Shown in pieces: positions 13,501-61,960 of a stretch of DNA of 64,000 nucleotides (the first letter of the stretch is position 1; the number at the start of each line of letters is the position of its first letter). The translations under genes were made by a program, and so were the position numbers. The notes beneath the pieces were generated by a model. That model had not been told where the DNA came from, ran no database searches, and saw nothing but the letters and a program-made list of their open reading frames with translations. The stretch lies in the NCBI GenBank assembly GCA_030248225.1, contig JASANE010012823.1, positions 62,001 to 126,000 on the forward strand. Direction: 5' to 3'. Origin of the DNA: Trileptium ribeirensis (taxonomy: Eukaryota > Nematoda > Enoplea > Enoplida > Thoracostomopsidae).

Positions 13501-16500
13501 TGCCAAACTATGCATGATCATACTCACTTGTGTGGCCGAGGTTAGCTCAGGCAGAGTTTATTTGTGTGGAATTATTCAGTTGTTTACATATCTAATTTTT
13601 ACTCTTATTTGATGCTTTATAATATTGTCTGCTCCGCCTGCTCCTACTCCTCTTTTACAAAATTTAATGCTTTTAACTTTTTGTCAGTCATACTTTTCGG
13701 AATGGGCAGCTTTATCTTTATGTCATAACTTTTGAACCATTAGATGGATTTGGGTGATTTCTTTTTATTGAGTGCCTCATAAGCTGGGTTACCTATGGGT
13801 ATCCATTTTAGGTTAGCCACGACATATTGACAGAAAATGACGAGCAAAATGCCAGAAAACGGAGTAACTTAACAACGCGTTGATGTATTTTGCTGCTTGT
13901 CAAATAACTTAAACTAAAGCTCGGTATGATGGTTGAGGGCCCCCGCTAGCCGAATTCCAGTGGCCGTGGTCGCGAATTAGCACGTATCGGTTGAAAGTCC
14001 GCAGGCTGGGTTTCGCGCTAGTCTGAACAATAATTATTATGCAAATTGATAACTAATATTACTAAAAACAAAAAGTGTTCTTTTTACCTTTTGCGGCGAA
14101 ACAAAATACATTGAAGAATTTTATGAACAAATATTATTTACTTTTATTAGAAAACATTACTGGAGTCTCTACTGAATAATAACAAGATTACTGGTGGTTA
14201 TGATGGTAAAGTACCAAAGTAGATCGTCGGACTGGTAGAATATCAGGTGTTTTTTATAAACATAGTATGTTTTTTCATAATTTCCGACAGGTAAACGTTA
14301 TGATATCGCACACTAATGTAACGTATGAGTTATTATTACTATTAAATTATATTTTTGTAGGATCAGTATGCAAACACGCTTATGCATGACAGCAATATGA
14401 CGTTTGCGGTGCTTCTTTATCGAGCTGTAAGTCGCGTGTAATTGTATATAAACCTTAAAGACATTATTATAGCCAGAAATTATTTACAAGTTCGATCGAA
14501 ATCGACGGATATTTCGCTTAATTTCGGTTAATCGAAATTTCTACCTGCTGCGATTTCGACCCATTTTTGATGAAACAAAATTTGAATTATTTTCGATTGT
14601 AGTGCAACTAAATAAAACTCAAATGTATAAAATTTCGATCAAATAAGATTTTGATAAATTGCTATTAATTAACGAAATTTCGAGAGATTGCGATGTTGAT
14701 TGTTTTCGAGTGCACTTTATTTTTGACTGGCCGTTGGGTGCAAGCGAATGTGTGTAAGACCCATTGGTCTTACTTCCCTTGGCGGTCGAACAAGAAATCA
14801 AAATTTTACTAACAATAAAACGTAGCGACTAATAAGGAACATGTCGGCAGCGCAGCATACGACTGACTGCAATGACAGAAGATATAACTAAGACGCAAGA
14901 CGTAGAAAGGACTTGCCTATTATATACAAATTAAGAGAATGCAAACTATTTTTTCAAATTTGGGACCAGTTTCAATGCTGTTTCAATATCAAGGATTTTC
15001 AGTTATTATCAAAAGCAGCTTCCTAACCAGACCGGTTTTTGGCTGCTATAATCGCATCTTTGTTTCAGGTAGTGAGTGTAAATTTTTTAGAAGTTTTGAT
15101 TTTCGAATGTCATTCTTAGTTAACAACATTACCTACGGTACACGCCAAATATTACTACCGCCTTTCAATGTGAGCACGCGTTGAGCCAGCATCGAGCAGG
15201 CAGTGTTATAACATGTTTTGAGCAGCAAGGCAACTGGGTCGTTTCTGGCGGATTCTACATAGATTCATTGCACTCTCGCCATTCAACGTTTATCTTTTTG
15301 AACATATTACATGAGGATGCGTTGTGATAGTAGATTAGGCCTATTGTTCTCACTGAGGGTTGATGTGTACTCAATTGTAATAAAAATACAAATGCGTTGG
15401 AGTAGAAGTCTTGCTATTATGGTGTGTTCACATTGCGTTCGTTGTCATTCGATCCGGTTTAGGCGTATATTGCATAATTATCATAGAGTGTTTCGGTTTT
15501 ACATCCGATCCGATCCGATAGAACGTGCACAATAATTTTATTGGATATGAAACATACGGTGTAGGGTGAAATGCATACACACTCAAATAAGGTACGTGAA
15601 AAGTTTGGATCTATCGGGTCGGCTCGGAAGAAATTTGAACACAAATCAGACCGGAACGCTTTGAATCGGACGCAATGTGAACACAGCCTTACGGTACGTA
15701 CTACCTCGTTACGAAAAATATCATAGTGCTAAACTCGAAAGCTGTTATATATAACAATTTGCTTTACAACAAAGGTAAGTGCAGGCGGAAATAACGGGCG
15801 TTCCGATATGGAACACACTAAGACGACCACCTTATGTCGAAATATATATATACGATGATGCTCCTGGTCTTAGTGGGCTTATGCGCGTTCACAGTTTGAA
15901 CGCAGCACTATTATAAGCAAGTTTTTTTTGTAAGATAGGAACCAACGCGCGTTCAGTGTTGAACACAGCGCAGTTCCAAATTTACAAAACAAATTGGTAC
16001 GCCCGAATGTATTAGCCAAATAGCACAACACTGAAATTTTATCGGAACCAGTAACAACGAAGACACACTGTTGCAGAGCAGAGAACTTTTATATAGCGCA
16101 GATGTTTTGGCTACGAAATATAAATTCGAAATATAAATATGCTACATGGATTTGCGAAATGCCAGAAAGAACAACAAAAACCACCGCACAACAAAACAAT
16201 ACGCGGGCCTTAAAAATTGCTTTTATAACAATAATACTCTAATAATAATAATAATAATCATAATAATAAAAATAATACTCATGATTGTTACATTTGCCCC
16301 TCCCCCGAGAAAAGTGGACGTCCTCGTGCACCATACAGTCAGTTATTTTCTTTTCTGTTGTCGCTTCTTCTCCAACCATTTTAGAGTCTACGCTCTCGTG
16401 CCCCAGCGCCCATGTGCTTTCGTTTTTTTCTCGGTCCACTTTGGTGTTGTTCGGCGCTCGGCAAACCGGAACTGGTGCTCGGTTGATCCATCCAAGAAGC

Positions 16501-19500
16501 CGCATACGTGAAGTTGTCTGCCGTCGGCATAATTTGTGTTATTGGAACTTGGACAGTATGACTCGCTGTGGCCGGCGAAAAAATAAATCCGACTGTGGCT
16601 GCACGTGCTATGTCACTAATGTTAGCTTGATAAGTAGCACAATTATCGAACAAATACACCATTTCATACGAAGGAAGTAAAAATGAGCGCTTTAAATTTT
16701 CCGCCCACGGTGGTAGATCCAATTCAGGTTTAAAAGCATTTAATCGAGGGTCACGCTGACTAACTGTTGGCTCTTGATATGTTGCATAGGTTGTCGCGCG
16801 AAAAAACACCAAATGCCTTGCAAAACGAGGTAAAGCTCGATTTGGCGACGAAACCGGTCTTTTGTTTGGATCCCGCGGATCAGATAATTTCACAGTTGCG
16901 ACGCGTGGTATTGTTTTCCAATAAAAACTAGTATCGTACGGATTATAATCGCTACTGTCATCGGTAATGAAACGCATCGGCGGCCGCAAACTTACCGAAT
17001 TAGCATTGGAGCTGCAATCCAAATGTTCAGGACTTGACGGCCGTTGGGGAGATCAAAGACCAACATCAGCCGGTGATATTGGCCGTGCCTGCGCTTTCCG
17101 ATTGTGTTTTCTTGGATCCGGATAACTAGCAGGCAAATATGATTCAATCCTTGCTACTTCTGCAGTAGAGTCCAACACCACACGGTGCTCTAAAGACCGA
17201 TTTAAAGGTATTGTACGCGGCCGACAATGATCCGCAAAAAACTCATGCTCTTCCTCCGGCTCCAGCAAATTAATAACATCCCCTTGATCACTGTCACTGT
17301 TCATGTTAGTCTAGTTGCTGTTTGATTAGATGAAAAAATTTTATAACGCACAACCCGATTCGAATATTAGTTATATCAGCATAATAGTAGCAATAATATA
17401 AATAATACTCCGTGCACAATTAATCTAAAATATAGAAATTCATCCCCAAAATACATATAAGCAAATTAAATATGTAGAATATATAGGTAATTGGCTATGG
17501 CCTAGTGAAGTCCTAAATTTCGAGAACGTAGATTATATGAAATTATATTAATATTAATGCGATTGTTTCAAGATTAAATGAAGTGAACGCTATTTCCGTA
17601 GTCTGAAATTATATCTAGATTTTCCCGTAGTTAGTTTACAATGAAGCCTGCGTCTAGGACTTAATTTAGCCACACCGCTGTCAAGGTTGACCGGATAATC
17701 TGTACCTGTAGGGAGTGGTAATGCATCATCTATTACGTCTTTCGCAGTAGATTGCAGCGAATTTTCCGAACTACTATACTTTAACTCTTCAACATTAGGA
17801 CGCGGTATTAGTTCCTTCCCTGTTTTCTCAGCCTGTGCACTGTCATTGTCCGCCTTACGATAGTAAACGTTATGTTTAGATTTAATTTCTGGGCTCAAAT
17901 TGTCGTCTGTGTTGTAGTTGATTCGCTGACAAGATACTGTGGGAGCTAATTAGAGACGTCGCACATTAACACGCATTCCCACAGATTTTGTTGACTTCAC
18001 CACTGGTTCAATTGACGCTCCAGTTCCATCTTCGGAAATTTTAACTATGCGGTAAGGTCCCCGCCAGTGTCTCGCTAGCTTTTTCGATTTTCCTGCTACA
18101 GTGGGAACATGTAGATATACACGATCACCCTCTACGAATGGCAACGTACGGGCTCTCCTATCGTGCTGCGACTTCTGTCTTTCTTGTGTCAATGCAACCT
18201 GTTTCTTCGCTACTTCCCATGATCGAACTAATCGATGAGCCATATCGGGAACATAGTCCTGCACGGTAGTCGACACTTGATTTCGGTAGAGCAGATCTAT
18301 TGGCAGAACTGGGTCCCGCCCAAAATTCAAGTAATAGGGCGATTCCATAGTAGTTTCATGAACGCTACTGCGGTAAGCAAAACATACGTAAGGTAGTATT
18401 TCATCCCAATCCGACTGGCTGCTGTTGATGAAAAGACTTAACATTGTTTCCAATGTTCTGTTAAAACGTTCGACCATACCATCACACATAGGATGGTACG
18501 CCGTCGTGAATAACTTTTGGATTCCCAGTAACCGACATGTCTCCATCATCAATTCAGATGTGAAATTGCGACCTTTGTCTGTGAGCAATTTGCACGGTAC
18601 TCCGAAACGACAAAATACTTGTTCCACGAGAACTTTCGCCACTGTTGCAGCTTTCGTGTCCTGTAACGCACAGCATTCGACCCATTTCGTGAAATAATCC
18701 ATTACTACGATAATATAGATATTGCCAGCACTAGACTTCGGAAGTGGACCCAGTATGTCACATGCTATCATATGCCACGGATATTCAACTGCAATCGGTT
18801 GCAATTGCGGTATTGTTTTAGCTTTCGGTGGTTTCCTCGTAATGCAACTCGGGCATTCTTTACACCATTTCACAACGTCAGAATAAACTGTCGGCCAGTA
18901 GTACCTTTCAGTAACTTTCTTGTAAGTTTTACGAATTCCGAGGTGTCCACCGAAAAGATGGTCATGGCATGCTACCATAATATCTTTTCGCAACGATTCT
19001 GGTATATAAAGTTGTTCTTGTTGATGTACATTACTTTTACGATAGAGCAGTCCGTTCCTAATAAACCACGGCTCACATGCGCACTCCCCTAGATTTGAAA
19101 TCGACTTGCACATGTCACTAGCCAGTTTATCGGCTATCTGCTTCTCCCGAATGACATCCTGTTCAGTCTCTTTGTTCTCTGAAGTGAGCGGTATCAATTC
19201 TGACGTTGTTACGTTAACGTATGCTATACTTTCTGTCTTCGGGTTAGCCAAGTTAGAACAATATTCGCAAATATCGGTCTTTAGTTCAAAATCTGGATAA
19301 TTGCTATCGGGCCTTCGTGAAAGTGCATCAGCGTTCCGATTTTCTTTTCCGGGCCTATGAACTATATTAAAATTATAGCCTTGAAGCATCAAGCTCCATC
19401 TACAAACTCGACCATGCGGATCTTTCATTGTTAACAACCATTTAAGTGGTTGGTGATCCGTAACGACTGAAAACTGGCGTCCATAAAGATATGGTCGAAA

Positions 19501-22500
19501 ATATTTGATCGCCCAGACCACGGATAACGCTTCTCGTTCAATTACGGAGTAGTTCCTTTCGGCTTTCGTCAATGTTCTGCTCGCGAACGAGACAGGATGT
19601 TCCTTGCCATCGGCGGCTTCTTGACTAAGGACAGCTCCTATTGCGGTGTCACTGGCGTCCGTTTGTAACGTAAATGGCTTTGTGAAGTCGGGAAAGACCA
19701 ATATTGGTGCCGTCGTTAGTAACTTCTTAATTTTATCAAACGATTGTTGACAATCCGGCGTCCACTTAAACTTCACGTTTTTCTTGTATAACGAATGCAA
19801 CGGACCGGCCAATTTTGCAAAACACCAAACAAATTGCCTATAATATGACGCCAGACCCATAAAACTTCGCGCTTCTTTCGCATTTTTAGGAATAGGCCAT
19901 GTCAAAATCTTGTTCACCTTAGAACATTCCGGAAAATAACCATCTCTCGACAGAATATGTCCTAAGTACGGTATTGATTCTTTACCGAAGTGACACTTTT
20001 TCAACTTGAGCTTCAAATTTGCTAAACGCAGTCTTTGAAATACTTGTTGCAAACGTGACAGCAATTCATCGGCGGTCGAACCCATCACTAAGATGTCGTC
20101 TAAGTATACCAAACAAACTTTCCAGTCCAAACCAGCAAGCACAGACTCCATGAGCCTCTGAAATGTAGCTGGTGCATTTGTCAAACCGAAAGGCATTTTG
20201 CGGAATTGAAATAAGCCATCATACGTAATGAACGCTGTTTTGGATCGGCTATTTTGCTCCATTTCAATTTGATGATAGCCACTTTGCATATCCAATGAAC
20301 AGAAATATTTTGCATTACCGAGCGATCCCAGTGCATCATCAATTCGTTTCATCGGATAACTGTCGCGCCGTGTGATAGCATTTAGTTTGCGATAATCAAC
20401 GCAGAACCTGTACGTTCCATCTTTCTTCGGTACCAGCACAATCGGTGATGCCCATTCACTAGTCGACGGCTCGATTATACCACTTTTAAGCATATCTTTT
20501 ATCTTCTGAGACACAACTTCACGTAATGCAAAAGGTGTTCTGTAGGGTCTCTGTCGAAACGGAAGAGCACTGCCGATGTCTATTTCATGCTTCACACTGC
20601 GTGCTATACCCAAATCATGATCACCACTGGAAAAGATATCTGCATATTCATAAAGCAACGATTTGAGCTTCTCTTGATCACTGCCGCTTAGCGTACATTC
20701 GGATAGATCCAAATCTTTAAGATTAGGCGGATACGTCGTCGAGTTTCCTTCCGTTATAGAAAATATGTTAATGAAGGAGTCCGGCGCTCTCGCTTGTACA
20801 TCCAAATTTCGTTCTTGGTCAGCCGTTAATTTGGTGCCAACCGCAATCCGTGTGCCTTGATACATTTTCACGGGGGAACTAGCCGGATTCATTACCCGAA
20901 CAGGAACACTATGGTCAGCTGCGCGAATACTAACAGTATTGGCAACCACAATGTTGCTTGAATCATTATCCAACGACGGTTGTTCAACCAAAATCGGACC
21001 ACTGTCTAACTGTTCGGCTTTCGCAAGTATTATCATTTCCGACCTCGGCGGAACACTGACAGTGTCAATTAGTGTGATATACGACTGAACTGGTTGTGCC
21101 GTATCAGTGGAATCTTTCATTGCAATCATCTGATTGTTAAAACACATTCGATTCATCGAATAGTCCAAGCTGAATGACCCGAGATTCTTCAGAAAATCCC
21201 TTCCCAATATAATTTCGTAGGGAAGATTTACAGCCACCGCCAGCGGACCATGAAATCTAGTTGCACCGAGTAGCACTGTTGCACCAATTGCCCCCACTAT
21301 ATTCATCAAGTGACCACTGGCTGATCGTATGTTGCACCCTATATTAGGTGTCATCTCGCTTTCCCGAGACTTGGATTGGGGGAGATTAGGTAATCGTGCG
21401 AGAGCATGTTCATCAATTAACGATATCTGGGAACCTGTATCAATGAGTGCTACCATTGGCACATCATTGACTTTGATACACACAGTCCCATTGGATTGTG
21501 TTGGTAGTCCAACGTGATCCAGATTATATGGTCGAAACTCCGTAGCTGTGTCTTTACTCACTGACACTGCAGGCAGTGATTGTCGGTTCATTTGTTGAGA
21601 CACTGTTGTTACGCCGTGTAATTCATTTGACGACGCTTGATGGTTTCCAGACAGCAGGATTGTCCTTATTAGATTACCATTGTTTCCAACGATGTTTTGT
21701 ATTCGATTCTTTAATAGTTTCCAAATAATTTTTAGCACCACCGATGTTGAAACGTACAGGCAGCATATAAAGACCCAAACTTGTGTCGAGTCGACAACCC
21801 ATCCTCTTGAAAATCCAAATAATCCTTTTTGCACTATTGTAGCTGCTGTTTGACTGGCCGCTTCTGACGGCGACGTGTATTGTCCGTTAAGGCCAAGTTT
21901 CGATAGCACTTGCTGTTGTTGATGATACGTGACGAATACATCATTTAATGAAATTCGCGAACGAATTTCGCTAAGACGATACATTACAACCGGATGAAAC
22001 AAGACATCAGGTATGTGATCGTATCGATGACTAGTCCACTGTAAAGGCAACTGTCGATACTCTGTCGCCTGTTGTAGCTCTCCTGTCTGCAAATAGATGT
22101 ATGAATGCTCGCGAAGTGTAAACGGAATTCCATCAACCGCTTTACACTGAATATCGGCGCCAATCGTACCGATGACGTTCGTATGTGGGTTCATGTATGC
22201 TCGCTGATGATGACCACCAATAGTGACTTGCATCGGTATATGCTTGTTGCAAGTCTCATTCATCGGTTTGACCACATACTCGCCATCTTCGAGCTCTTGA
22301 CAGGGCCAAGTTTCCACGAAGTTTCCGCCAGATATAGCAACCAGGTTACCATGGTTAAGTATGCTCCGCATAGCTAACGTCGGATTTTCCAATAAAAATG
22401 ATTCCCCCGTATGGTATAACGCTTTCATGTTACGACATACATCGTTAACTGCGTGAGCAAACATTGTCCGTATTTGTTCATTTACATGAACTTCAAGCGC

Positions 22501-25500
22501 CTGGAGACTCGAAGCTAGCAATTCTGCAGAAACAAAACTAACTGGTACACTGTTCGATAATTGTCTCTTCGGTCGAACTGCATTAGTTATTCCCATGTTC
22601 GAGACTATAACTTTACCTTTATGTAGTCTTTGCTTGAAACTGCTTGTTCCAAATGCACTTTCTGCCAGTATTTCGACTGGAATGCCTTGATCAGACATTA
22701 TCAATCGCTTCCCATCACAAGTTGAAATGGTACCAGCATTTCCAAAAGTCAAGGCAAGTAGTCCATTTTCGGATAACCATTTAGAACCCACCTGATTGCC
22801 TTTCATTTTCTGCCACGGAATGTATTCACAGTTGCCAGTCTTGTTCGGTTTCCAAATAATAAATTTTCCGCCGTCTAACGTGCAAGAACCAGTCTGGTAC
22901 TTGCAATGTGTTACGTCACTAGCCGCTGATTGTGGGTTGTTATCACCATGATGTTGATACAATCGGGTTTCGTAAAGAAAGCAGTTAGTAACAGTGAATG
23001 TTTTCCACGAGCAACAGTGTATACCACCGCCAGGATAGTACCAGTCTAATTTATTGTTGGTAGACCATACTCGACCAAATCTCGTCAGAGAGCCCGCTGA
23101 ACAAGTTTTGAACTGTTGCATTCTTCGGCATTCGGCTTCTGTAACTAACTCTTCCAAACTCTCTGATTTCTTTAAGTTTTCGTCGTTGAAGAAATACGTA
23201 AACGTTTTGACCGTACTAGTAAGCTTGGAGCACAGCCACGCCTTGCTGATATATTGTAGTATGTTATGTTTGTAAAGCAAATAATCTACTTTCCTGAAGG
23301 GTTCCTTCGATTCAATTTCTGAGATGTTGCACGCCACCGCATCAGGCAACTGCCACAATTGCCCTCTTGCCGTTGGATTGCACACGAGCGGGTTGGGAAA
23401 AATCACCTTGGTGTGACCAACCGTGACCAATATGAGCATGCAGAATACGGGGAAAAGTACCATCGTCGATACAGACCGCGCCATACCCGTCTTGATACTG
23501 CCGCTTTGCGATGAACTTCTTATTTTCGTCAGGTTGGGCAAGCTACAGGTTGCAATTGGTTCAGGGTCTGTCATATTGTGCTTCAAAGACTCATTAATAG
23601 GTTCAGTGGAAACCAGTGGATCGTGCGATGTCTCTTGTTCGGGATTACCAACTTTCGTAGATTCAGTTTCCAGTCGATCCAACACTGTCTTTACGCGTTT
23701 GCGATCCTCAGTCGTCAGTGAAGCATTAGAGATTGCCGCTTTGACGCCAGTCTGATTCTGCGGACTTTGATTAGTTGAAATCGGGAATGAACATCTACTT
23801 CGATTTTGCTTAGTTCGATATCGTCTTTCTTGAGACTCGCGGAAATCAACCGTTCTATGCCACTCATCAGTCTCTGCTTCTGTCATCAATTCAAGCTGAT
23901 ATTGACGTCTAGTTAGCGGTCGTGACCATGGAGCATCTGGATGCTGCTGCGCTTCCGGTAACTTCTGAAATTGTGAAGCGTTGGGACTAAACAGCAACAT
24001 CTGATCCACAACGGCTCCTATTCGATATGACGTTAATGGTTGACTTGCATGTGGAGGATCAATAATTCCCATTAATTCGGTATTGAAACCGTGCACACGG
24101 TACGAAAACGAGTGCGCCAATTTCAACATACCGTGGTCCGACAAATAAGGCACGTGATAAGTCAGATTGCAAATACTTGCTTCACCGGTGAACAAATAGT
24201 CGTTTTCTAGTACACTGTATTGTATGTTAGTAGGCTGCATTCGATCGATGTTCTGCTTGAGGCATTGGCGGAAATAATCTACTTTATAGCCTGGAACATC
24301 ACGACGGTCTAAGACGTTGGACCAATACACACATTCAATTTGAGCGTTCCGTTCATTGACAAATGCATGGACACGGCGAATCGCACGCATGATTTTCGTA
24401 TTCAATTCGTCATCCGAGGGCCAACTGCACGCACCATCGGTGGCCACTAGATCATTCGAGCCACTATGAATTACGATGGTCCACCGATTATTGGTCGTTG
24501 ACGCCGCTGAAGCAAACGCTGTCTCCAACAACTTATCCACATCCTCAATGCTGGCACCTGCACTGTATTTCAATATAGTCGACGAATTTGGACATAGATG
24601 TTGTAATTGCGAATCACCGACAAAGAGGAATTTATTCAAGTCCCTCGTTTCAGCGTTTCGTCTGTGTTGAGAACATTTTGATGCAGTCGATGGTTGTTTT
24701 CGTAGTCGCGCTGCTCGATTACTGTCGCCGTTTTTTAAAGAATTATGAAGAGTTTGTCTGTAGTTGTCCCTGGTTGCTGACAATCCTACATTACTGTTCT
24801 TTCCATTCGTTGTGCCGCCTGTTGCTGATTTGCCATATCCCTGTGGTTCATCGTTTGACTTTACGATTTTTCTCCCGTGCTCATCTAAATGTTGTTTACC
24901 ATCTGGTTCGTTCACCCGTTGTCCATTTAGTATCACTATTTGAGGTAAATAACGTACCCACGAACGAAGTTGACCAGGTTACGGGATCAGCGCCCAGATT
25001 ACTGTTCGTGTCATTTGTCTTTGAATCGGGCAATTGTTCTTCAACTAATGCGTTGTTACTGGCGGTGATACGTCTTGTCGTATTACTTGTGCGGTAATTT
25101 ACGCCCTGTTGGTTGCGCAACTGCCTATTGTGTGCTCTGCATTCGGTTGTTGAGTGCCCCGTCATTCTATGAAAATCGCAGTACTTATTCACTTGGCGGT
25201 TTGAACAATGCAGCGCGGTATGTCCTGACTTTCCACACACTTGGCAAATGGGGCGATTGTTAAGCGTAAATCTTTGCCTGCCGTACATAACACCGGAGTT
25301 GAAGTTACGTTGGGGATTGCCAGAGAAGTTGTTAGGAAAACGTGGCACGGGCACTGGTTTAGAAAACCTAGTTGGCATTGCCGGTTGACGCGCACTGTAC
25401 ACCTGTTCGCTAAAGGAATTCACAGTCTTACTGAGATTGTCAATCTGCGTTGCCATACGGTCGATGGTAGAAGTACTACCATCTTGCCAATTGCGAGGCG

Positions 25501-28500
25501 ATGCAACGAAGTTGCGATTTCCACCTTCCAATACTGAAATTCTAGCTTGTAATGCGTGAACGTTAGCCGCAAGTTCGTCTTCGGCGCCCAATTTGGTTTC
25601 AATGCGTTCGGCCGCTAATACAGCTTCGCTCATAGTCTTGGGTCCCATGACTTTAACTTCCTCCCGTATTCTTGGTTTAAGCCCAGCAATGAACTTATTT
25701 CTCAAGTTTGTTTGCTTTTCGGTTTCTACTGTCATATACGTTAACGCCGATTGTGCTAACTCACTCAACACCTGAGCGTATTCGTTAACCGTTTCAGTAG
25801 ACCGCTGTGATCTGATATCGTACTGATCACTTAGAAATCGCTTTCGATCCTCCGTCATTAGAGCTGCTTCCAATTCCGGTACTAGTCGGCCATAATCTGT
25901 GCGAATGACTTCACTGAGATTGTTGAACACAAACTTAGCGTGTCCTGTCAAATGCACGCCAAGCAATACTGCTTTATTTTCCTGGGGCCAACCGTTTGCA
26001 GCAAACTTAACCTCGAACTCATTCTGCTTCCATGCCTTGAAATCTTCTCCTTTGCCCCCGCCAAAAGGCGAAATGGGCAAGTTTGGTCCCCGCAAAGCCA
26101 TATCTGACCTAGGCGATACACTAGCAATCTTTGATTTGTCAAATTCTGATTTTAAAACGTTCTCACACTTCTCAAATCTCTGGTTTAGTTGATCAGAATC
26201 AGCCTTTATCGTATTGTCCAGTGTTGCTAATAATGTACTGTGATGCTCAATTTGCGTTGTAATAACATCCAATCTCTGAGTGACTGACTTCTGAAAATCG
26301 GCGAGTTGTAAGTCGACACGTGTCAATGTCCTTTGATCGAGGCGTCCGTCGCGAGCTGATGCGGCACCGAGTGTTTCACCGCTTGACAAACTGCCTTTTC
26401 GACGATCCGTTATCGACTATTAACGTCAGAGTTTGGTTTGCAGTTCTCTATTGTCCGTATGGTGAACGTTGCAATGCACAGGCTTGGCGAATGAAACTAA
26501 TTGCAACGATGATTGAAACGAGACGGGTTGCAATGATATAGTCGAACCCCACCGTTGCTACCAATATAACAATTTGCTTTACAACAAAGGTAAGTGCAGG
26601 CGGAAATAACGGGCGTTCCGATATGGAACACACTAAGACGACCACCTTATGTCGAAATATATATATACGATGATGCTCCTGGTCTTAGTGGGCTTATGCG
26701 CGTTCACAGTTTGAACGCAGCACTATTATAAGCAAGTATTTTTGTAACGTAGGAACCAACGCGCGTTCAGTGTTGAACACAGCGCAGTTCCAAAGTTACA
26801 AAACAAATTGGTACGCCCGAATGTATTAGCAAAATAGCACAACACTGAAATTTTATCGGAACCAGTAACAACGAAGACACACTGTTGCAGAGCAGAGAAC
26901 TTTTATATAGCGCAGATGTTTTGGCTACGAAATATAAATATGCTACATGGATTTGCGAAATGCCAGAAAGAACAACAAAAACCACCGCACAACAAAACAA
27001 TACGCGGGCCTTAAAAATTGGTTTTATAACAATAATACTCTAATAATAATAATAATAATCATAATAATAATAATAATAATACTCATGATTGTTACATATA
27101 TAACATTATGGTGCCATACGTTGGAGAAATCGATGCTGTAAAGCAGTCGAGCATTCTAAAATGCGAACAGCAACTTTGTGCTTGGAAACTGACGTGCATG
27201 CTATGTGGATTTATTTGTTTTAATTTTGTATTTCTTCGTTTGAAATATTAATTTAATTATGTTTTGCTTCGTTTGCAATATTATTATTACAGCCTATTAC
27301 ATAGGTGTCAATGGGGTTATGGAGGCTCCCCCTACCGTACGGTCGAACCCCCTCAAGCCAAATTTACCCCCCCATTGTAGGCGACGCGCCAAAAGCCTAT
27401 GAAATATTTTAGCAGTGAAATTTGGTAAAAATTGGGACGTAACATGGGAAATTAGAAAAAATTTATCGCAAATTGGCAAAAGCTGGGAAAATGTTTTAGT
27501 TCCTAATTATGCACCACCACTTTTTTCCCGGGCACCCTCCATTTTTCAAAGTCTTACGACGCCCCTGTTTAATTTATGCCTAACACGCAATGTGTTAACA
27601 AACTAGCTATAGCTGTACAGTGCCGCATGCTACGTAATGGACTTTGCAAAGCGTCTTATTGACTGGATTTGAAAATGTGAAATAACACTTTCAGTTGGTT
27701 ACACTACGAAAGTTAGAGCCAGATCATAAACGACATTTTTTCAGTAATTGAATTTTTAAGTAACCGATATGTAGACAATCGTTTCCGCTTCATTTGCTAT
27801 TATTCGTGCTTCGCGCAGTCCATTTTATTCGCAATCAACACTAAGTAGTATGCAATCTTCCCTTTCGGTAACTTGAGCATAGCGTTGATCACAAAATGTC
27901 TGGCGAGAGCGTAATGATTACGATGCATATTATATTTGCTTTAGAAAAATTGGGTTTACAAAAGTGTAGTATAATAGATCGAGTTACGTAGATACGAATG
28001 CTATCATTGCATAGTGCTCGCTGGAAATGAGTGCAAGAGATGAAAACTTTCGCTCAATGTTAGTTCGAAAAATTATAAATTTTATACCAAAGGTTTATAA
28101 ACTTTTGTTCGAGGTCTGTTCAGAAGTAATTCTCATTAAATGCAGTGTTAGAATCTTCGTCGAGAATCCTTCAACAGTGTTGTTCAAGTGCAAGTAAATT
28201 ATTGGCATTTGATGTTTGGTCGATGTTCGTTCTTTCTTTCGAAACTCTGCGGCCATTTCTTGTGTGAGTACGGTATATGTATGTTCTGTCAATTTCTGTG
28301 CAGTAGGCTAATATTATGCGGTTTCTTTTGTGACTTTCCAGCCGATGCGTCATCGTCGCGCAGGATTTGACAAACAAATCACAATACGTCGCCCTCTTGC
28401 CTGTGGCGTTCTTGATTTATGTGTTGAATTTGTGCTTAGTCATATGATGCGCAAGCTGCCGTTTGAATTATATCTGTAAGTTACGGCAACATTTTTTCAA

Positions 28501-45745: not shown

Positions 45746-45954
45746 CTATTTCTTGGCGGAAGCCCTTTTAGCTTTCGGCTTCTTCGTAGCTTTCTTGGAC
45801 GGCGAACGCTTTTTGGTCGGAGACTTTTTCGGCTTTGCAGCGGACGATTTTTTGGGCTTCCCGGCTTTCTTCGGCGACTTTTTCTTTATTGCTCCAGCCG
45901 CGGATGTTGCGGTTTTCTTTGGCTTGCTGTGAGTGCGTGCCTTCTTCGAAGGGG
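45746..45954 (-). CDS. Histone H1 exon 3
   Basis: Acceptor ttattttcag; two bases complete a Ser codon, then 68 codons and TAG. Encodes the Lys-rich C-terminal tail. The longer ORFs in the other frames here are by-products of its lysine codons. Confidence 0.95.
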
Positions 45955-48900
45955 CTGAAAATAATGCAATGTATATCGCTCAAATCGGTGCCAAATAGGG
46001 ATTAACCGGAATTGTAGTTCGGCTAATTTCCGCCGGAGTCTAAAATCCAGCCTCACGTCTCATCATTGCAAATTTATATAAACACGCGCATATAACTGCT
46101 ATATGATAGCATGTTTGGCAAATTATAACAATCATGAAATCAGTAGACATACATGTATACAAACAAAAGAAATATATTTTCGCCTTAAAAAACAGGAACA
46201 AGACTGTTTCATTTATGGATTAGATTGTTAGCTAATTTTGTGTAAAAATATGATAAATTACGCTAAGGACATGAACTTGGAACTTCAATTCGAATTTGCC
46301 AGTTTTGCAGGAACCGGAATTTAGCTTACGTTCCGGTCTCATGTCTGTTGCCTCGGCTTTCGTTCTGATATCTTCGATTAACTCAAATATTTTCCCATAG
46401 CTATTTCACGACCACTACGCCAACTTGAAACATTAGAAGGTCATAACTCGCAAAGCCAGGAGAAACAGCGCCAGTGTGGTCACACTGCGCTTAGGGACAA
46501 TGTTAATGCAAGTCCCTGAGCCCAAAATAACAATTACAACTCTACAGCTATTTAATCATATATCAATGACCAAAAAGACGAATAACTGGGAAATTTATAA
46601 ATCACAAATAATAAAAGAGTCCCCATACATCGGAGAGTGAGCTTTACGTTGCAAGACCCCAACCCTTGCCCCGCGCATACCACACCAGTACAACATTCTT
46701 GCGTGATGCTGCGATTGTAGTTAGCAACAATATAAACCTATATCCACATTCTAATACATGCCCCTCATACGCATCCATCAACATTATAGTTGTATCCGGG
46801 TCCGGTTACCGACAATACCCAGACTGCTTGTCTGCGATGCCGATGTAATGGCGTACAATAACCTACAGACATGAGGTCAAATTAATTCAACGTGCAAAAA
46901 TGTTGCGTTGCGTTGTAGTTTGTACGCAACGCATCGGGCTATCACACAAAACTTTGCAGACCTAATCTAGGCTTTAGCATACGACTACATATTTGAAAAA
47001 ATAATAAATTTCACATGTTTATTCCTGAAATTTAGCATTCATAAGGCCTCGGTTCAGGTCAATTTGGGTTCCGGTTGCTCACCAATACATATCATCAGTT
47101 ACATAATAACCGGAAGCGAAACTGTAATTTTAAAACGGCAACGGAATCTGGAATTTAGAAATGTGTAAGACGTAAGTAAAATGCGTACCATAACAAATGA
47201 AAAAAGAAATAAACGTAGTGTGGATTTTTAAAATGTGTTGAAACAACTGCTACAAACAATCCAACTAGTATTGATGTCAACGTAAGCTGGGATCTGGGTC
47301 GATGAACAATTCCTGCGACAAAATAAAGTAGTAGCAGTATATCGTGTATTAACGGGCATTGGATGTTGCAGCTCGAAGGATTTTGCGTATTACAAGGGTT
47401 CGAAGAATTCTCGAGAAATACTGACAATGTCAAATACACACGACTGAAGGAATACACTTGTCCATATTTATGTTTTACAGGGCAGCTTGATGTTGTAAAA
47501 CTTGACCAGCTACTGCGTGATACAGCTTATAAAATTCTCAAAAATCTGTTCTATCAAAAAATGTTTTATGAGGTTTACAAGTTTTTGACTCAAATCACAA
47601 GTGGATTGAATAAGACGATAATGTATATACTGCGAATCAACATATGTACAAAATCCATTGTAATCTTAACCAAATCAAACTAACAATTGAACAAGAGGCC
47701 ATTGCCATAGGGAACGCCGGTCTTACCCACAAAAATCTACGCCCTTCGCCGATATCACAAAATGCTGTAGTTACATTTTAATTATTGGAGGGTCAGTGTG
47801 CGTGCCATAAACATAATTATGGCGCCGAAACGGTTTTAGCAATCTCAGCGGTACATGTAAAACGAATCATGTCAAGGGGAGACTTGGCATCGGAACCACA
47901 AAAAATTGACAATTGAATTTGGCGACCAGGCTAAGCGATAAAATATTCAATCGACGGACTTGGCAAGATCTTATAAAACTGTTCAACTGTCACTAAGCAT
48001 AAATAAAATTTGACAAATGTTTGAAAACGACGCTGATACAAAAGTTGCAGCTCCCGATAACAGGCATCTAATATATATTGTATATGCTGAATCGAACACT
48101 GTAGCGGTAACTAGAACTAAAAGCGGTGAAATACACAAAATAAAGGCGACCCCAAGCAACTAAAAATTCAAAGTCTACAATATGTGCCAAGTTGTGATAA
48201 TATGAGCAGGAAATTATTGCAACAGCAGATGCGATTATGCGTCGAATAAAACTTAGCGAAATTAAGCTGAATAATTACATGATTGCCATGGACGAAACGA
48301 AAGGCATATGGACAGTTGCTGATGGCTACCTTAGTAAACTCCACTCGCTACGCATAACCAAAACGGACTTCGGTCCAAATGAGACACTCTCTACTGCAGG
48401 TATCCCAATATTAGCAATACCGGTGTAAAAAAGCTGACAATAAACTAAACTTACATCGCTTCTTCGCAACTTTGGTTTTCTTTTCGGCTTTATCGCCAAG
48501 ACGGAACCTGCCAGACGCGCCAAGCGATGTGGGTTTGGTGTGCTTCAATGATCCCGTTTTCAATCCGTTCCGAAGAGCAATCTTCAAGTGGCTATTGATC
48601 ATTTTCGGATCCTGGCTCAGCTTGAAATTGGCCAACAAATACTTGAGAATCGCATCGCGTGACGAGCCATTTCTGTCCTGAAACCAACAAAGAAAATAGC
48701 TTGAAAGAAAACAAAGTGCTAAATTGTATATAGCTGCAGACGTTTCCAGAGGGCGTGAACCGGGGGAGGGGCGCCCGATTTTGTCAAGAGAAAAAGCTTA
48801 AAAATCGTTGCGACTTTTTTGTTTTTTGTCAGAACAGAATTTTAATACAAATTTTGATCAAATTGTATGTACTTTGGACCAATTGGAAAGAAGTTGGTAA

Positions 48901-55300: not shown

Positions 55301-57245
55301 GGTCTCATTTATTGTGCAGTGGACCCTGTTACCAAAATAACTAAATTGTTTCCTTCACTGAGCGCTGTTCAAATGAGTGGATTGTTCGTTTGCTTTAACG
55401 GGTTCTGTCCAAAAGGCTGTGTTAGTAGGTATCCTTGCGAAAACTAAGCGTCTTATTGGATGACTCTCAGCCCATTTCACATTATTCAAGCTATAAACAT
55501 TTCATTTAAGGTAGCTTGTTGGGCGGTAAGGGGTGAGTTACGAAAGTGTGTCTCTTTATTTCTCCTCTACCCTCGCCAGCAAATCCCACTAGCAAAATTC
55601 ATAATTAAGGAGCTAAATGTGTAAGAATAGTTTAATGCATCATTTATCTTGATGTGTGCCTACAGCCCGATTCTGTCACAGAGCCAATTCAGGCACATCC
55701 ACATCCGACCCTTCATACATAAAATAAATAGCTAAGCTATGCTAGTATGTTTGTACGAGCCAGGAGTGGCCATGTCTCAGGGTTTGATAGCCGGGACGGA
55801 CTACAGAAAAAATATTTATTACATTCAGTTTTAGCAGATTGTGTTACAGGTAAAACATTTCGCTCTCGGCCCAAAAATGCTCGATTAGCAGTAATTAACG
55901 AGAGACGAATAAATGCAAGTGAAATAAATACGCCAATATCGCTATTTTGAAATTTTTTTTGTTTGAAAGCCTTTTACAAGCCAACCTAGTATCTATGTAA
56001 AACACGCTCTTTTGTGCATGAAAATTACATTAATGTAACTGGAAGGATGTCTTACGAATATATGACCGTAAATATCACCAATTTCGATTTTTTAGCGATT
56101 TTCTAATGTCATCGTATATGTCTGGCCTTTAGAGCAGATGCCGGCCCTTGTAACAATTTATCGGCCTCGGTTTACTATTAGCTAAATATATTTATAGGGT
56201 TTGGCTAGGCCCAAAAACGTCACATTAGCTAGTCGCAGCTAGCCAAACATGGCTTTAGAGACGCGACAGACTTACAATATCCGGCCCTGCTGCACACATC
56301 TTAAGGTAAATGATGCATAAAGTCAATAATGATAAACTGCTAAACCCCCAGTACAAGTACAATTTGTGGGCTACGCGGGCCTGAAAAAATTCTTTGAACT
56401 CGAGGGTACAGGGCGGTGTGGCGGCGGAAACGCCTTCAGAGGCTTGGGTACCCGCGGGTTAAAAAATTTGCGCGCGCACAACTCTGTGTTTTTCTTGAAG
56501 CAATAAGTCGGCCTTCGGACACACTAAGAAAGTGGACACATATACAAGATATTGGATTCGTCATCGACGGTGGGAATGTTATTGAATGCAGGGAGATAGA
56601 AAGCCTCGTACCGAGGTTCCCGACCTCGAGGTGCCGACCTTCTTATCTTAGATTCCGAGTTTTTGTGCAGTGTTATCCAATATCCTTAATTATTTTTCGA
56701 ATATTCGATGTTTTGGCGTTTTGACCAGTCATTTTCAACGAAACTATGAGTATATGTCCCTGTGTCATATAATATATTCTCATATATATTTTATGTTAAA
56801 TTTGGTTTACTTCCGAAAGCATCTCTACTACAATTCTTAAAATATAACCTTTTAAACTGCAATTAAATTGCTCATTTATAAGTTTGTATTTGAATCAAAT
56901 TCATGACGTACATTGTTTTACACCCTATGGTACTAGACAAATTGCGGCAGCTTAATATTGATAAAGGATTTTATAATTTTCAAATTGTTAAAATTTGTTT
57001 TAAAATAGCATCATTAAAAATTAGCACTATTTCGTTGCAAATCCGTCCCAACTAGTAAATATCTAAAAAGATTCATATGAACGTATTTATATATCTTTAT
57101 ATTACAAAGACGTTATATTCAATTTACATGAATTAATGTGAAGGTCTTGCGAAGATCAAAATATTTTAGTTGAAATATGATAAACTCAAATTTTTTTAAT
57201 TTTGGTTAACCTCATGTGTCAAACAACAAACATATAATCTTAAAA
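52383..57245. other. Intergenic region upstream of histone H1
   Basis: No gene recognised. Several GC-rich patches (about 53700-53990, 54100-54260, 54720-54780) look like old transposon ends. One, at 54250-54260, has the cgacgcccctg terminus. Short ORFs at 54.8-55.9 kb carry no domain I can name. Confidence 0.5.
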
Positions 57246-57253
57246 GCATTATG

Positions 57254-58692
57254 GGCATAAGTCTAATATCGGGGCCCAAGAAATGAAAAAAATTTTTTGC
57301 TCCGATTTGCCTAAAATTTTGCATACGGGGGTTTTCCAGTATGGGGAATTCATTTTTGACACTTTTAGCGAAAAAAAATTTTTGACCAAAAAAAATTTTT
57401 TTTGACCCAAAAAATTTTGAAAAAAATTTTTTTTTCAAAAAGTCACCCAAAACCATTTTTTGATGCCAACGGAAAAATCGGACATGCTGCGGGTTTCTTT
57501 TTGGATTTGATGCAGTGCAGCTTGGTGAGCGCAACTAAGCAGCATCTCTTAAATTTCGTCGAGAGTCTTTTTATTTTTTCTCACGCTTGCTATCTGGCTT
57601 TGTAATTGTTGCCTCGTCTTCTCACATTTTCGTTTACTTTTTTCTCACGCTAGCTAATTTTGTAACACTTTCATCGTTTACCGCCTGCTTAGTTTTTGTT
57701 TTGATCCGAATGCACTTTGGAAATGGATGTTTTTCCGATTAACAGAACAGCTAAAGGACGAACGAGCTGCCGTTGCATTTTTGCCACACGGCGTGACGTC
57801 ATACACACTAGAGTGAGTGCCCGGTTTGTGCACGTGAAATGACCATGACACAGGATGCCTGTGTGGCTGGTTTCAAGTGGCGTTGGCCCCCAAAAGCATG
57901 CCAAGCAAAGTATTTTGACCAACAGTTACTTACGCAACCACCAGATTGCCGCCAAAGAAGGTCGTCATGCTGATCTACTTCTGGGCCGCGGAGGTCAAAT
58001 ACAAGCAGATTGAATTCCTCGTAAACGTGGCGCACAATACGGTTATTGATTACATGCAGTACCTCCGTGATATCTGTAGCTGGAAGCTTTTGCAAGATCC
58101 AGTTCGCCTTGAGCGATTACCGGGGCTGTCTGCCAAATAGACGAGAGCGTCATGGTCAAACGGAAATACAACCGCGGCAGACTGCAGCGTGAACGATGGG
58201 TCTTCGGCATATATGATGTCCTTGTAAAGGAGGGCTATTTTAGTGCTTTGTCGACGACCGTTCTGCAGCAACCCTGCTACCGAAGTGTTACAAAATTAGC
58301 TAGCGTGAGAAAAAGTAAACGAAATGTGAGAAGACGAGGCAACAATTACAAAGCCAGATAGCAAGCGTGAGAAAAAATAAAGACTCTCGACGAAATTTAA
58401 GAGATGCTGCTTAGTTGCGCTCACCAAGCTGCACTGCATCAAATCCAAAAAGTAAGTTGAATATGTTGATTTTTCTGTTGGGCCATCAAAAAATGGTTTA
58501 ATTTCGGCAAAAAAAATTTTTTTTAGAAAATTTTTGGGTAGAAAAAAAATTTTTTTGGTCAAAAAATTTTTTTTTCGCTAAAAGTGTCAAAAATGAATTC
58601 CCCATACTGGAAAACCCCCGTATGCAAAATTTTAGGCAAATCGGAGCAAAAAATTTTTTTCATTTCTTGGGCCCCGATATTAGACTTATGCC
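57254..58692 (+). mobile_element. Merlin-like DNA transposon remnant with very long TIRs
   Basis: 1439 bp flanked by the 8-bp direct repeat GCATTATG (57246-57253 and 58693-58700). Termini are GGCATAAGTCTAATATCGGG and its inverse. The inverted arms extend far inward, about 400 bp on each side (to about 57672 and from about 58278), including ttgatgcagtgcagcttggt and its inverse. Between the arms lies a decayed + strand transposase fragment of the Merlin/IS1016 type. An 8-bp duplication and GG-terminal TIRs agree with Merlin. Confidence 0.88.
57720..58275 (+). pseudogene. Merlin-type transposase remnant
   Basis: Pieces in different frames: LKDERAAVAFL, a CPVC zinc-finger-like start, LIYFWAAEVKYKQIEFL, and QIDESVMVKRKYNRGR followed by WVFGIYDVL. 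The last two are hallmark segments of ISXO2/Merlin transposases, and the Asp in QIDES is the first catalytic residue. The reading frame is broken several times and the sequence runs into the right inverted arm before the second Asp and the Glu, so it cannot be active. Confidence 0.8.
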
Positions 58693-58744
58693 GCATTATG
58701 TTTATTTGGGAATTGGTTGCAATTAGTGTTAGATAACCGCCGTG

Positions 58745-60911: not shown

Positions 60912-61690
60912 CTGTAATTTTGTAAATATACAATACCTAAATACGTTAGTCTGGTTTAAATGGATATTCGTGGGTTATTCTTTCGTCAAATCTATTTACA
61001 TTCTTAAAATTATTGGCAGCATATATTTCACAAACTAGCTCGAAATTTACGACTCCGTTTCCTAGAAACGCTTTTCAGAATCACGTTCCTTCATCGCAGT
61101 TTTATTCACCCTTAGACCGCGGACACAGCTGTCGGACTCAGCATGTCATTTGATGAACACCGACAAACTTGCAAATTGGGCTACTGAGAAAATATGCATA
61201 CATGCTGATAGGGGAGAGGGGGATTATCCCCTGAGAGTTGCCCACCCTTGGGGCTTCGCCGACGCCATGAGAGGTAGTCTGATTTTTCTGATCCGTTTTT
61301 CAAAATATGCGAATGTGCAAGTGCAAAAATTTGGTCGACAGGAGTTCTGTTCGCATTTGTTAAACTGCAAATAGCGATGACAAAACTGTGTGTGCTAGTT
61401 TTTGCACGGTTCACTTTAAAACTTCACAAAAAAACTACCTTCGTGTACGTATTTGAAACTAACTCATACATACCTAGCGGCTGTGATCATTTGCTAAACA
61501 CTGACGGCGTAATGTCCGTTTGCTTCTGGTTTTAAGTTTTCGAAGTTTCGTTGAAAATACCTATTTCACTTATATGCCTCAGTCCGTTTGCTATCGATTT
61601 TTGAATCGAAATATGATTTCAACACTACCCTTAGAGTTATATCTCTCGCTGGTTTCTATTTTGATTTACCATATCGGTAGTACGCTCACT

Positions 61691-61960
61691 TTCGCTTACG
61701 GAACCGGGCAACTATACAATGCTAACAGACCACGTATATTCGGTTTCGCTTACGGAACCGGACAACTATACAATTCTAACAAACAATATATATTCGGTTT
61801 CGGTTATGGACCCGGACAACTATACAATTCTCACAGCCAATGTAAATTCAAATTTGCTTAGGTAATCGGATAACGAAAAATGCAAACAGACCACGTATAT
61901 TCGGTTTCGCTTAAGGGATCGGACAACTATAACACAATGCTAACAGACCGTGAGAAAATT
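61691..61960. repeat. Tandem array, five units of 54 bp
   Basis: Units start at 61691, 61745, 61799, 61853 and 61906, with the core ttcgcttacggaaccggaca then actatacaat. The first three keep an open + strand frame of 18-residue repeats (FAYGTGQLYN type); later units carry stops. Most likely a minisatellite. Confidence 0.8.

What the first reader, a model, noticed from the sequence alone, without database searches (positions are those of the whole stretch)
17950..24978. Envelope-like glycoprotein embedded between gag and protease, in frame with pol
Seen directly: one uninterrupted frame of about 2340 codons runs SGNH-like, env-like (signal peptide, furin-type site, Cys-rich ectodomain, anchor), protease, RT, RNase H, integrase, all catalytic residues intact, in an element with near-identical LTRs. 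Established: retroviruses, errantiviruses and other env-bearing LTR elements place env after pol. Inference: this lineage acquired a glycoprotein by a separate route and expresses it as part of Gag-Pol or from an internal ATG. It may be an undescribed retroelement architecture.
Basis: partly seen in the sequence, partly recalled or inferred. Interest (0 to 1): 0.88.

Follow-up and report, generated by a model that had tools for sequence, protein, structure and literature searches.

The report
Retroelement envelope gene inside Gag-Pol
An animal-type genome carries a diverse family of virus-like jumping elements whose membrane-fusion (envelope) protein sits in the middle of the Gag-Pol protein instead of after it, which suggests an unusual way of making an enveloped, retrovirus-like particle.

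Summary
The minus-strand element at 15750-27096 has near-identical LTRs (7 substitutions in 529 columns), a gag ORF, and one open frame running SGNH-like, envelope-like, PR, RT, RNase H, IN. The envelope-like module is a gB/chuvirus-type fusion glycoprotein (Pfam Monjiviricetes_fusion, 28.1 bits, cut-off 27; its family profile finds gB in the PDB, E 1.6e-6). It is no one-off: at least 73 places in the host genome, 35-100% identity. In 20 of 20 fetched copies (of 72 others, chosen mostly for long frames) it lies between Gag and PR; in 15 of 20 Gag to IN share one frame. Envelope and RT trees share three of four main clades, and two usable pairs show purifying selection. No shared start codon or splice acceptor precedes it, so I favour an internal signal peptide plus anchor threading one Gag-Env-Pol polyprotein through the ER membrane, flavivirus-fashion (inferred; no RNA or protein data). 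The "SGNH" domain lacks the catalytic serine in 13 of 15 copies and is not found in some. Ten literature searches found no such arrangement, but the key 2025 survey could not be read; the search for envelope-less relatives did not complete; the host is unidentified.

The parts
26565..27096 (-). 5' LTR (starts TGTAACAATC, ends TTGTTATA)
26541..26564 (-). putative primer-binding site region just after the 5' LTR (TTGGTAGCAACGGTGGGG...); tRNA not identified
   Evidence: sequence shown; inference
24896..26416 (-). gag ORF (506 codons open plus stop), CCHC knuckle CQVCGKSGHTALHC; weak Retrotrans_gag/Ty3_capsid matches, below their cut-offs
17950..24978 (-). open frame of 2342 codons plus stop: SGNH-like, Env-like, PR, RT, RNase H, IN
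23944..24663 (-). SGNH-like domain (GDSQLQ, GSND, SDH); serine not conserved in relatives
21682..23481 (-). Env-like module: leader about residues 4-22 of P0002, furin-type RPKRQ about 303-307, anchor about 568-586; PF24664 Monjiviricetes_fusion
21157..21516 (-). retroviral-type aspartic protease (DTG)
19882..20661 (-). reverse transcriptase (YLDD); nearest solved relative Ty3 RT
19282..19881 (-). RNase H
17953..19116 (-). integrase (H2C2, rve core, GPY in the C-terminal part)
17593..17949 (-). 119 codons in frame after the Pol stop, ending YNFRLRK; looks like the usual Pol C-terminus of relatives, cut off here by the stop
16381..17052 (-). ORF3 of unknown function (223 codons stop to stop), no Pfam match; short basic C-terminal motif shared with an ORF at the same place in one other copy
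16293..16310 (-). polypurine tract next to the 3' LTR
   Evidence: sequence
15750..16292 (-). 3' LTR (with a 13-nt tandem duplication relative to the 5' LTR)

Best explanation
This is a member of a diverse lineage of Ty3/gypsy-type (Metaviridae-type) LTR elements that fixed a gB/chuvirus-type (class III, by relation) fusion glycoprotein between Gag and protease. SHOWN: position, order, frame continuity, broad co-inheritance with RT, purifying selection in the two usable pairs. INFERRED: the element makes one Gag-(SGNH-like)-Env-PR-RT-RH-IN polyprotein. The hydrophobic leader of Env works as an internal signal peptide, the ectodomain goes into the ER lumen, and the C-terminal anchor returns the chain to the cytosol. 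Two membrane-active segments leave Gag and Pol on the same, cytosolic side. Signal peptidase would free Gag-SGNH at the leader, the element's own protease would cut between the anchor and PR, and furin would cut the ectodomain. Gag, Env and Pol would then start out at the same membrane in fixed ratio, as in a flavivirus or alphavirus polyprotein (recalled), without a spliced env mRNA.
For: Own genome: 75 env matches at 73 places (73 of 576 candidates scored, so a lower bound); 28 of 75 rows are stop-free in open frames of at least 2000 codons, 15 of 75 at least 2800. Order GAG-(SGNH)-ENV-PR-RT-RH-IN in 20 of 20 fetched copies; all modules in one frame in 15 of 20, and in 13 of these 15 the stop-free frame covers the whole Gag match through IN (starts and ends). 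Among 18 copies (window plus 17; L022, L027, L028 dropped) ENV/PR and PR/RT share a frame in 18 of 18, GAG/ENV in 16 of 18, SGNH/ENV in 15 of the 15 with SGNH. Linkers (GAG match to ENV match 55-659 codons, SGNH included where present; ENV to PR 55-99) hold no stop in 20 of 21 copies, window included. The RT tree recovers three of the four main groups of the ENV tree and does not resolve the fourth. NG86 omega, window vs L021: ENV 0.20, SGNH 0.21, RT 0.09; L029 vs L039: ENV 0.08 with dS 2.0. No shared Met before the leader; strong 3'ss-like sites within 900 nt upstream in 18 copies: 1 found, 3.6 expected from shuffles. Leader hydrophobic in 19 of 20 copies, anchor over the same threshold in 16 of 20.
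Against: No RNA, protein or topology data. The window copy and L040 have gag in another frame from the rest, so these two cannot give a single polyprotein without a frameshift; L028 has a stop inside its Gag match and L021's open frame begins about 7 codons into it. Four of 20 anchors (L023, L024, L036, L040) and one leader (L036) fall under my hydropathy threshold of 1.5, while three SGNH pieces (L025, L032, L040, up to 1.85), four PR pieces (L021, L022, L037, L038), one RT piece (L033) and one IN piece (L027) exceed it, and the linkers were not scanned; so the count of membrane segments is not clean. A looser splice scan found acceptor-like sites in 3 of 21 copies, two of them (L017, L031) near the same place, about 150 nt upstream. 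An equimolar Gag:Pol ratio would be unusual for a particle, so some process that makes extra Gag is probably missing from this picture. The splice-site scans are crude. The fetched copies were chosen mostly for long frames.
Confidence: 0.6

Rival explanations
1. Env is made from a spliced subgenomic mRNA, as in retroviruses and errantiviruses; the start codon comes from a leader or gag exon joined in frame upstream of Env, giving an Env-Pol chain that PR then cuts.
For: Retroviral and errantiviral precedent (recalled). Lack of a local Met does not exclude a spliced-in start codon. A loose scan finds acceptor-like sites in 3 of 21 copies, two near -150 nt.
Against: No acceptor-like site shared by the copies before env. 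It gives no reason for the Gag-Env frame to stay open and in phase in 16 of 18 copies.
Confidence: 0.25
2. Env behaves as a retained intron: splicing it out joins Gag to PR (Gag-Pol mRNA), while unspliced RNA gives Gag-Env.
For: It would solve the Gag:Pol ratio problem. Not tested directly.
Against: The ENV to PR linker is open and in phase in all 18 copies counted, which such splicing would not need.
Confidence: 0.06
3. The glycoprotein is used inside the cell (membrane anchoring of particles or cell-to-cell passage) and not for free enveloped virions.
For: Fusion to Gag-Pol ties particle assembly to membranes; nothing here shows extracellular particles.
Against: In the alignment of 20 copies plus P0007 the basic cleavage site (R306 invariant, R303 in at least 90%), 18-24 Cys per protein and the gB-like ectodomain are kept, as expected of a surface fusogen.
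Confidence: 0.15
4. One-off insertion, passenger sequence or assembly error at the env/PR junction.
For: None found.
Against: 73 places, 20 of 20 fetched with the same order, omega well below 1 in both usable pairs.
Confidence: 0.01

Closest known systems
Dingle elements of the annelid Dimorphilus (Ty3/gypsy; PMC7854359, passages seen)
   Same: Ty3/gypsy-type pol with an env likened to herpesvirus gB
   Different: That protein is described as found downstream from the integrase; here it lies between Gag and PR
Anakin elements of mosquitoes (BEL/Pao; PMC7642597, passages seen)
   Same: Chuvirus-type (gB-like) glycoprotein captured by an LTR element
   Different: Pao-family pol. The passages place the env-like protein of Roo, Tas and Cer-7 downstream of the polyprotein; where it lies in Anakin itself I did not see stated. 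PMC10084718 (abstract and passages seen) found no clear capture by Gypsy elements
Errantiviruses / env-carrying gypsy elements
   Same: Ty3/gypsy pol plus a fusion protein
   Different: Baculovirus-type env (passage of PMC12440569), placed after pol (recalled)
Bdelloid LTR elements TelKA and Vesta (PMC5408684, passages seen)
   Same: LTR elements that captured a negative-strand-virus fusion protein (TelKA) or a GDSL/SGNH ORF (Vesta)
   Different: Both as separate ORF3 downstream of pol; paramyxovirus-F type; SGNH residues said to be intact there, not in this lineage
Flavivirus / alphavirus polyproteins (recalled)
   Same: Proposed way of working: capsid, internal signal, glycoprotein and anchor in one chain
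   Different: No relation by descent; no reverse transcription

Membership tests
Metaviridae (Ty3/gypsy) | LTRs, polypurine tract, PR-RT-RH-IN order | tested here: met
Metaviridae (Ty3/gypsy) | RT closest to Ty3-type RT | tested here: met
   RT profile against PDB: Ty3 first (4ol8 E 7e-66, 7q5b 1e-64), then 'Enzymatic polyprotein' 8r0s (9.2e-41), 'Peptidase A9' 7kse (2.2e-31) and 'Pr125Pol' 7o0h; the remaining listed RTs at 9e-15 or weaker. No tree with BEL/Pao or other gypsy lineages was made
Metaviridae (Ty3/gypsy) | GPY/F module in IN | tested here: met
   RGPYR seen and in the consensus; that it marks these elements (with exceptions, and shared with some others) is from PMC12440569 passages
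Errantivirus | env after pol | tested here: not met
   ORF3 after pol in the window has no Pfam match
Errantivirus | baculovirus-F-type env | tested here: not met
   Pfam at E 0.01 gives Monjiviricetes_fusion, gB, BDV_G and one weak Lysyl_oxidase, no F-type family
Retroviridae | gag-pol-env order | tested here: not met
Retroviridae | tether plus second RNase H | not tested
   only one RNase H region was looked for
Jingchuvirales/Monjiviricetes fusion glycoprotein (PF24664) | profile match above curated cut-off | tested here: met
   window 28.1 and P0007 54.3 bits vs 27; 19 of 21 at E 0.01; of five copies re-scanned, L023 passes (35.5), L034, L026 and L036 lie under the cut-off, L017 matches only gB, under its cut-off
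Jingchuvirales/Monjiviricetes fusion glycoprotein (PF24664) | class III fold | tested here: inconclusive
   sequence profile finds gB; the predicted model has mean pLDDT 30 and is unusable
SGNH/GDSL hydrolase | catalytic Ser in block I | tested here: not met
   Ser in 2 of 15 (window and L021), otherwise D, E, M or G
SGNH/GDSL hydrolase | SGNH fold | tested here: inconclusive
   Pfam Lipase_GDSL_2 in 2 of 15, best E 0.031; PDB profile search without a relevant hit; model pLDDT 49; several GDSL esterases among the Foldseek hits, none of all hits at E 0.001 or better
Dingle | gB-like env downstream of IN | tested here: not met
   env lies before PR

The most novel reading that the evidence does not exclude
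A retroelement lineage that abandoned the separate env gene and thread-inserts a single Gag-Env-Pol polyprotein into the ER like a flavivirus, so that capsid, fusogen and reverse transcriptase are delivered to one membrane in fixed ratio. It would be a second solution to being an enveloped reverse-transcribing virus.
Probability: 0.45. Interest if true: 0.88.

Novelty: new variant of a known kind. Interest (0 to 1): 0.76.

Why it matters
Where the passages I saw state the place of env in a retroelement, it lies after pol (Dingle, TelKA, Roo, Tas, Cer-7); that this is general is recalled. A successful, diversified lineage with env inside Gag-Pol would show that the order is not required and would offer a natural case of a reverse-transcribing element with a polyprotein strategy for envelope production. 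It also adds a Ty3/gypsy capture of a gB/chuvirus-type fusogen; a 2023 survey found no clear Gypsy capture of Jingchuvirales glycoproteins (PMC10084718 passages).

Tried and rejected
Rejected: one-off insertion or assembly error; env from its own conserved ATG; an active SGNH esterase as a lineage trait. Led nowhere: protein database searches: env alone gave 1 hit, P0007, of unknown origin; SGNH gave 0; the env profile gave 0 even though P0007 was in it, so that search is not trustworthy as a negative. IMG/VR scans with env, RNase H-IN, SGNH, env profile and RT profile: no relative (5 of 8 used). Env model with 2 sequences unusable. Rfam and tRNA scans of the window empty. Host not identified. 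Never answered: whole-genome RT search, so I do not know whether close RT relatives without env exist. Of 87 SGNH match rows, 42 were tied to a listed env, 1 more lies on an env contig, and 44 have no listed env near them; of 75 env rows, 33 have no listed SGNH upstream. As only 73 of 576 env candidates were scored, the 44 are not evidence of env-less copies, and I could not fetch them.

Literature: 10 searches. Seen as abstract and passages: PMC12440569, PMC10084718. Seen as passages: PMC7854359, PMC7642597, PMC5408684, PMC8742986, PMC13172572, PMC12859917. No paper was read whole. Not held: Chary & Hayashi 2025; seen only as a citation and as a summary in a meeting report, which does not say where env lies.
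Full report
WHAT IS THERE. The element lies on the minus strand, 15750-27096. Its LTRs (532 and 543 nt) differ by 7 substitutions in 529 aligned columns and 17 gap columns, including a 13-nt duplication in the 3' copy, so the insertion is fairly young. A polypurine tract abuts the 3' LTR. The gag ORF (24896-26416) has a CCHC knuckle and weak capsid matches below cut-off. The long frame (17953-24978; stop codon 17950-17952) gives, in pieces, SGNH-like, Env-like, PR, RT, RNase H and IN. Pol is in the +1 frame relative to gag, with 83 nt overlap. In the closest relative (L021, env 92% identical) gag and the other modules are in one frame, except that the first 26 residues of the window's open gag frame match there in another frame. 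So the window's frame difference is either a broken frame or a programmed shift; I cannot tell which. Pol seems to stop early in the window copy: 119 more in-frame codons follow, ending in a YNxRxRK tail like that of the L023/L042 copy, and L021's frame also runs on.

THE ENV MODULE. Pfam PF24664 (Monjiviricetes fusion) is matched at 28.1 bits against a cut-off of 27. In the alignment of 20 copies (window included) plus database protein P0007, 19 of 21 match PF24664, 4 match herpesvirus gB and 2 match Borna disease virus G at E 0.01; of five copies re-scanned singly, only L023 passes the PF24664 cut-off and L017 matches only gB, under its cut-off. The profile of this alignment finds four gB sequences in the PDB (best E 1.6e-6), with the stretch from the cleavage site onward as the main one and a second (WKP..TE.C..KW) upstream (the call names them only as glycoprotein B). 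Copies share the leader, most Cys, the basic cleavage site (R306 invariant, R303 in at least 90%) and a C-terminal anchor segment with an invariant CC. The only database relative, P0007 (32% identical, 701 aa, 3020-nt contig), begins inside the module, so it shows no leader, and has a long tail after the anchor; I do not know its source. A structure model was attempted and is unusable (mean pLDDT 30).

NOT A ONE-OFF. The host genome (687 Mb, 20,229 contigs) holds 75 env matches at 73 places, identity 35-100%, with 73 of 576 candidates scored; 48 of 75 rows have no stop in the match, 28 of these sit in frames of at least 2000 codons and 15 in frames of at least 2800. I fetched 20 other copies of 72, chosen mostly for long frames. 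All 20 have GAG before ENV before PR, RT, RNase H and IN. SGNH is found in 16 of 20; it is not found in L034, L036 and L038 (in the last two only about 55 codons separate the Gag and Env matches), nor in the broken copy L022. All modules share one frame in 15 of 20; in 13 of these the stop-free frame covers the Gag match through IN, while L028 has a stop inside its Gag match and L021's open frame starts about 7 codons into it. After dropping near-duplicates L027 and L028 and broken L022, and adding the window, 18 copies remain (some still close relatives): ENV/PR in the same frame 18 of 18, GAG/ENV 16 of 18. The joining stretches have no stop in 20 of 21. By chance alone each junction would be in phase one time in three, so the fused frame is being kept.

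SELECTION AND HISTORY. Between the window and L021 omega is 0.20 for ENV, 0.21 for SGNH, 0.33 for PR, 0.63 for the linker and about 0.09-0.10 for RT, RNase H and IN; gag was not computed for this pair. For L029/L039 ENV is 0.08 with dS 2.0. Only these two pairs fell in the usable distance range. In the ENV tree of 18 copies the main groups are (window, L021, L023, L024), (L029, L039, L035, L040, L032), (L034, L036, L037, L038) and (L025, L026, L030, L031, L033). The RT tree recovers the first, the second without L032, and the third; of the fourth it recovers only L031 with L033 and leaves the rest unresolved. Pairwise-distance correlation ENV/RT is 0.53; over all module pairs it runs from 0.18 to 0.74. 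So env has broadly travelled with pol through the radiation of this lineage. The trees have no outgroup.

HOW IT PROBABLY WORKS. The leader is hydrophobic in 19 of 20 copies, but no Met position is shared ahead of it, and 4 of 21 copies have no Met within 60 codons before the NPLxC motif. Acceptor-like sites ahead of env are not enriched (1 found, 3.6 expected); a looser scan found them in 3 of 21 copies, two near -150 nt. Together with the protected fused frame this points to translation through Gag into Env and on into Pol. Such a chain makes topological sense only if the leader translocates the ectodomain and the anchor brings the chain back; that is the flavivirus/alphavirus way, recalled, and inferred here. 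Weak points: four anchors and one leader fall below my threshold of 1.5; three SGNH, four PR, one RT and one IN piece exceed it; the linkers were not scanned; and the Gag:Pol ratio is unexplained. A spliced mRNA with a start codon from gag remains the main rival.

THE SGNH-LIKE DOMAIN. Block motifs are recognisable, but the serine is present in 2 of 15 (window and L021, one family) and the block V histidine also varies. Fold evidence is weak. It seems dispensable (not found in three otherwise good copies), although omega is 0.21 in the one close pair, so it looks like a degenerate or re-purposed module that is still under constraint. Missing catalytic residues in a GDSL derivative of another retroelement (Athena-L) are reported in PMC5408684.

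AGAINST WHAT IS KNOWN. gB-like env in a Ty3/gypsy element is known (Dingle, after IN), chuvirus glycoprotein in BEL/Pao is known (Anakin), and GDSL ORFs in LTR elements are known (Vesta, after pol). None in the passages I saw is described with env before PR. I therefore rate it a new variant of a known kind, with the caveat that Chary & Hayashi 2025 could not be read and that no other genome could be examined.

Noticed in passing
window 16381-17052 (-); L042 1183-1824 (+): A poorly conserved ORF3 lies between pol and the 3' LTR; its C-terminal basic motif (RKKRKHMGAGARER) resembles the end of an ORF at the same place in another copy (RRKRKRTGKSARER; tblastn E 0.33). Possibly an RNA-binding or nuclear-localisation accessory protein (guess).
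   Followed up: partly
window 17593-17952 (-): The Pol stop looks premature relative to relatives; the usual C-terminal tail follows in frame.
   Followed up: partly
window 57199-57602 and 58299-58723: The same translated stretches recur on opposite strands, suggesting an inverted-repeat (foldback or MITE-like) element around about 57.2-58.7 kb.
   Followed up: no
window 45749-45979 (-): Lysine-rich, histone-H1-tail-like open frame (resemblance recalled).
   Followed up: no
window 61505-61858 (+): Open frame with about 18-residue tandem repeats (FAYGTGQLYN...).
   Followed up: no
   Followed up: partly
window 24588-25097 (+): Antisense open frame of 169 codons across the gag/SGNH junction; probably chance.
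   Followed up: no
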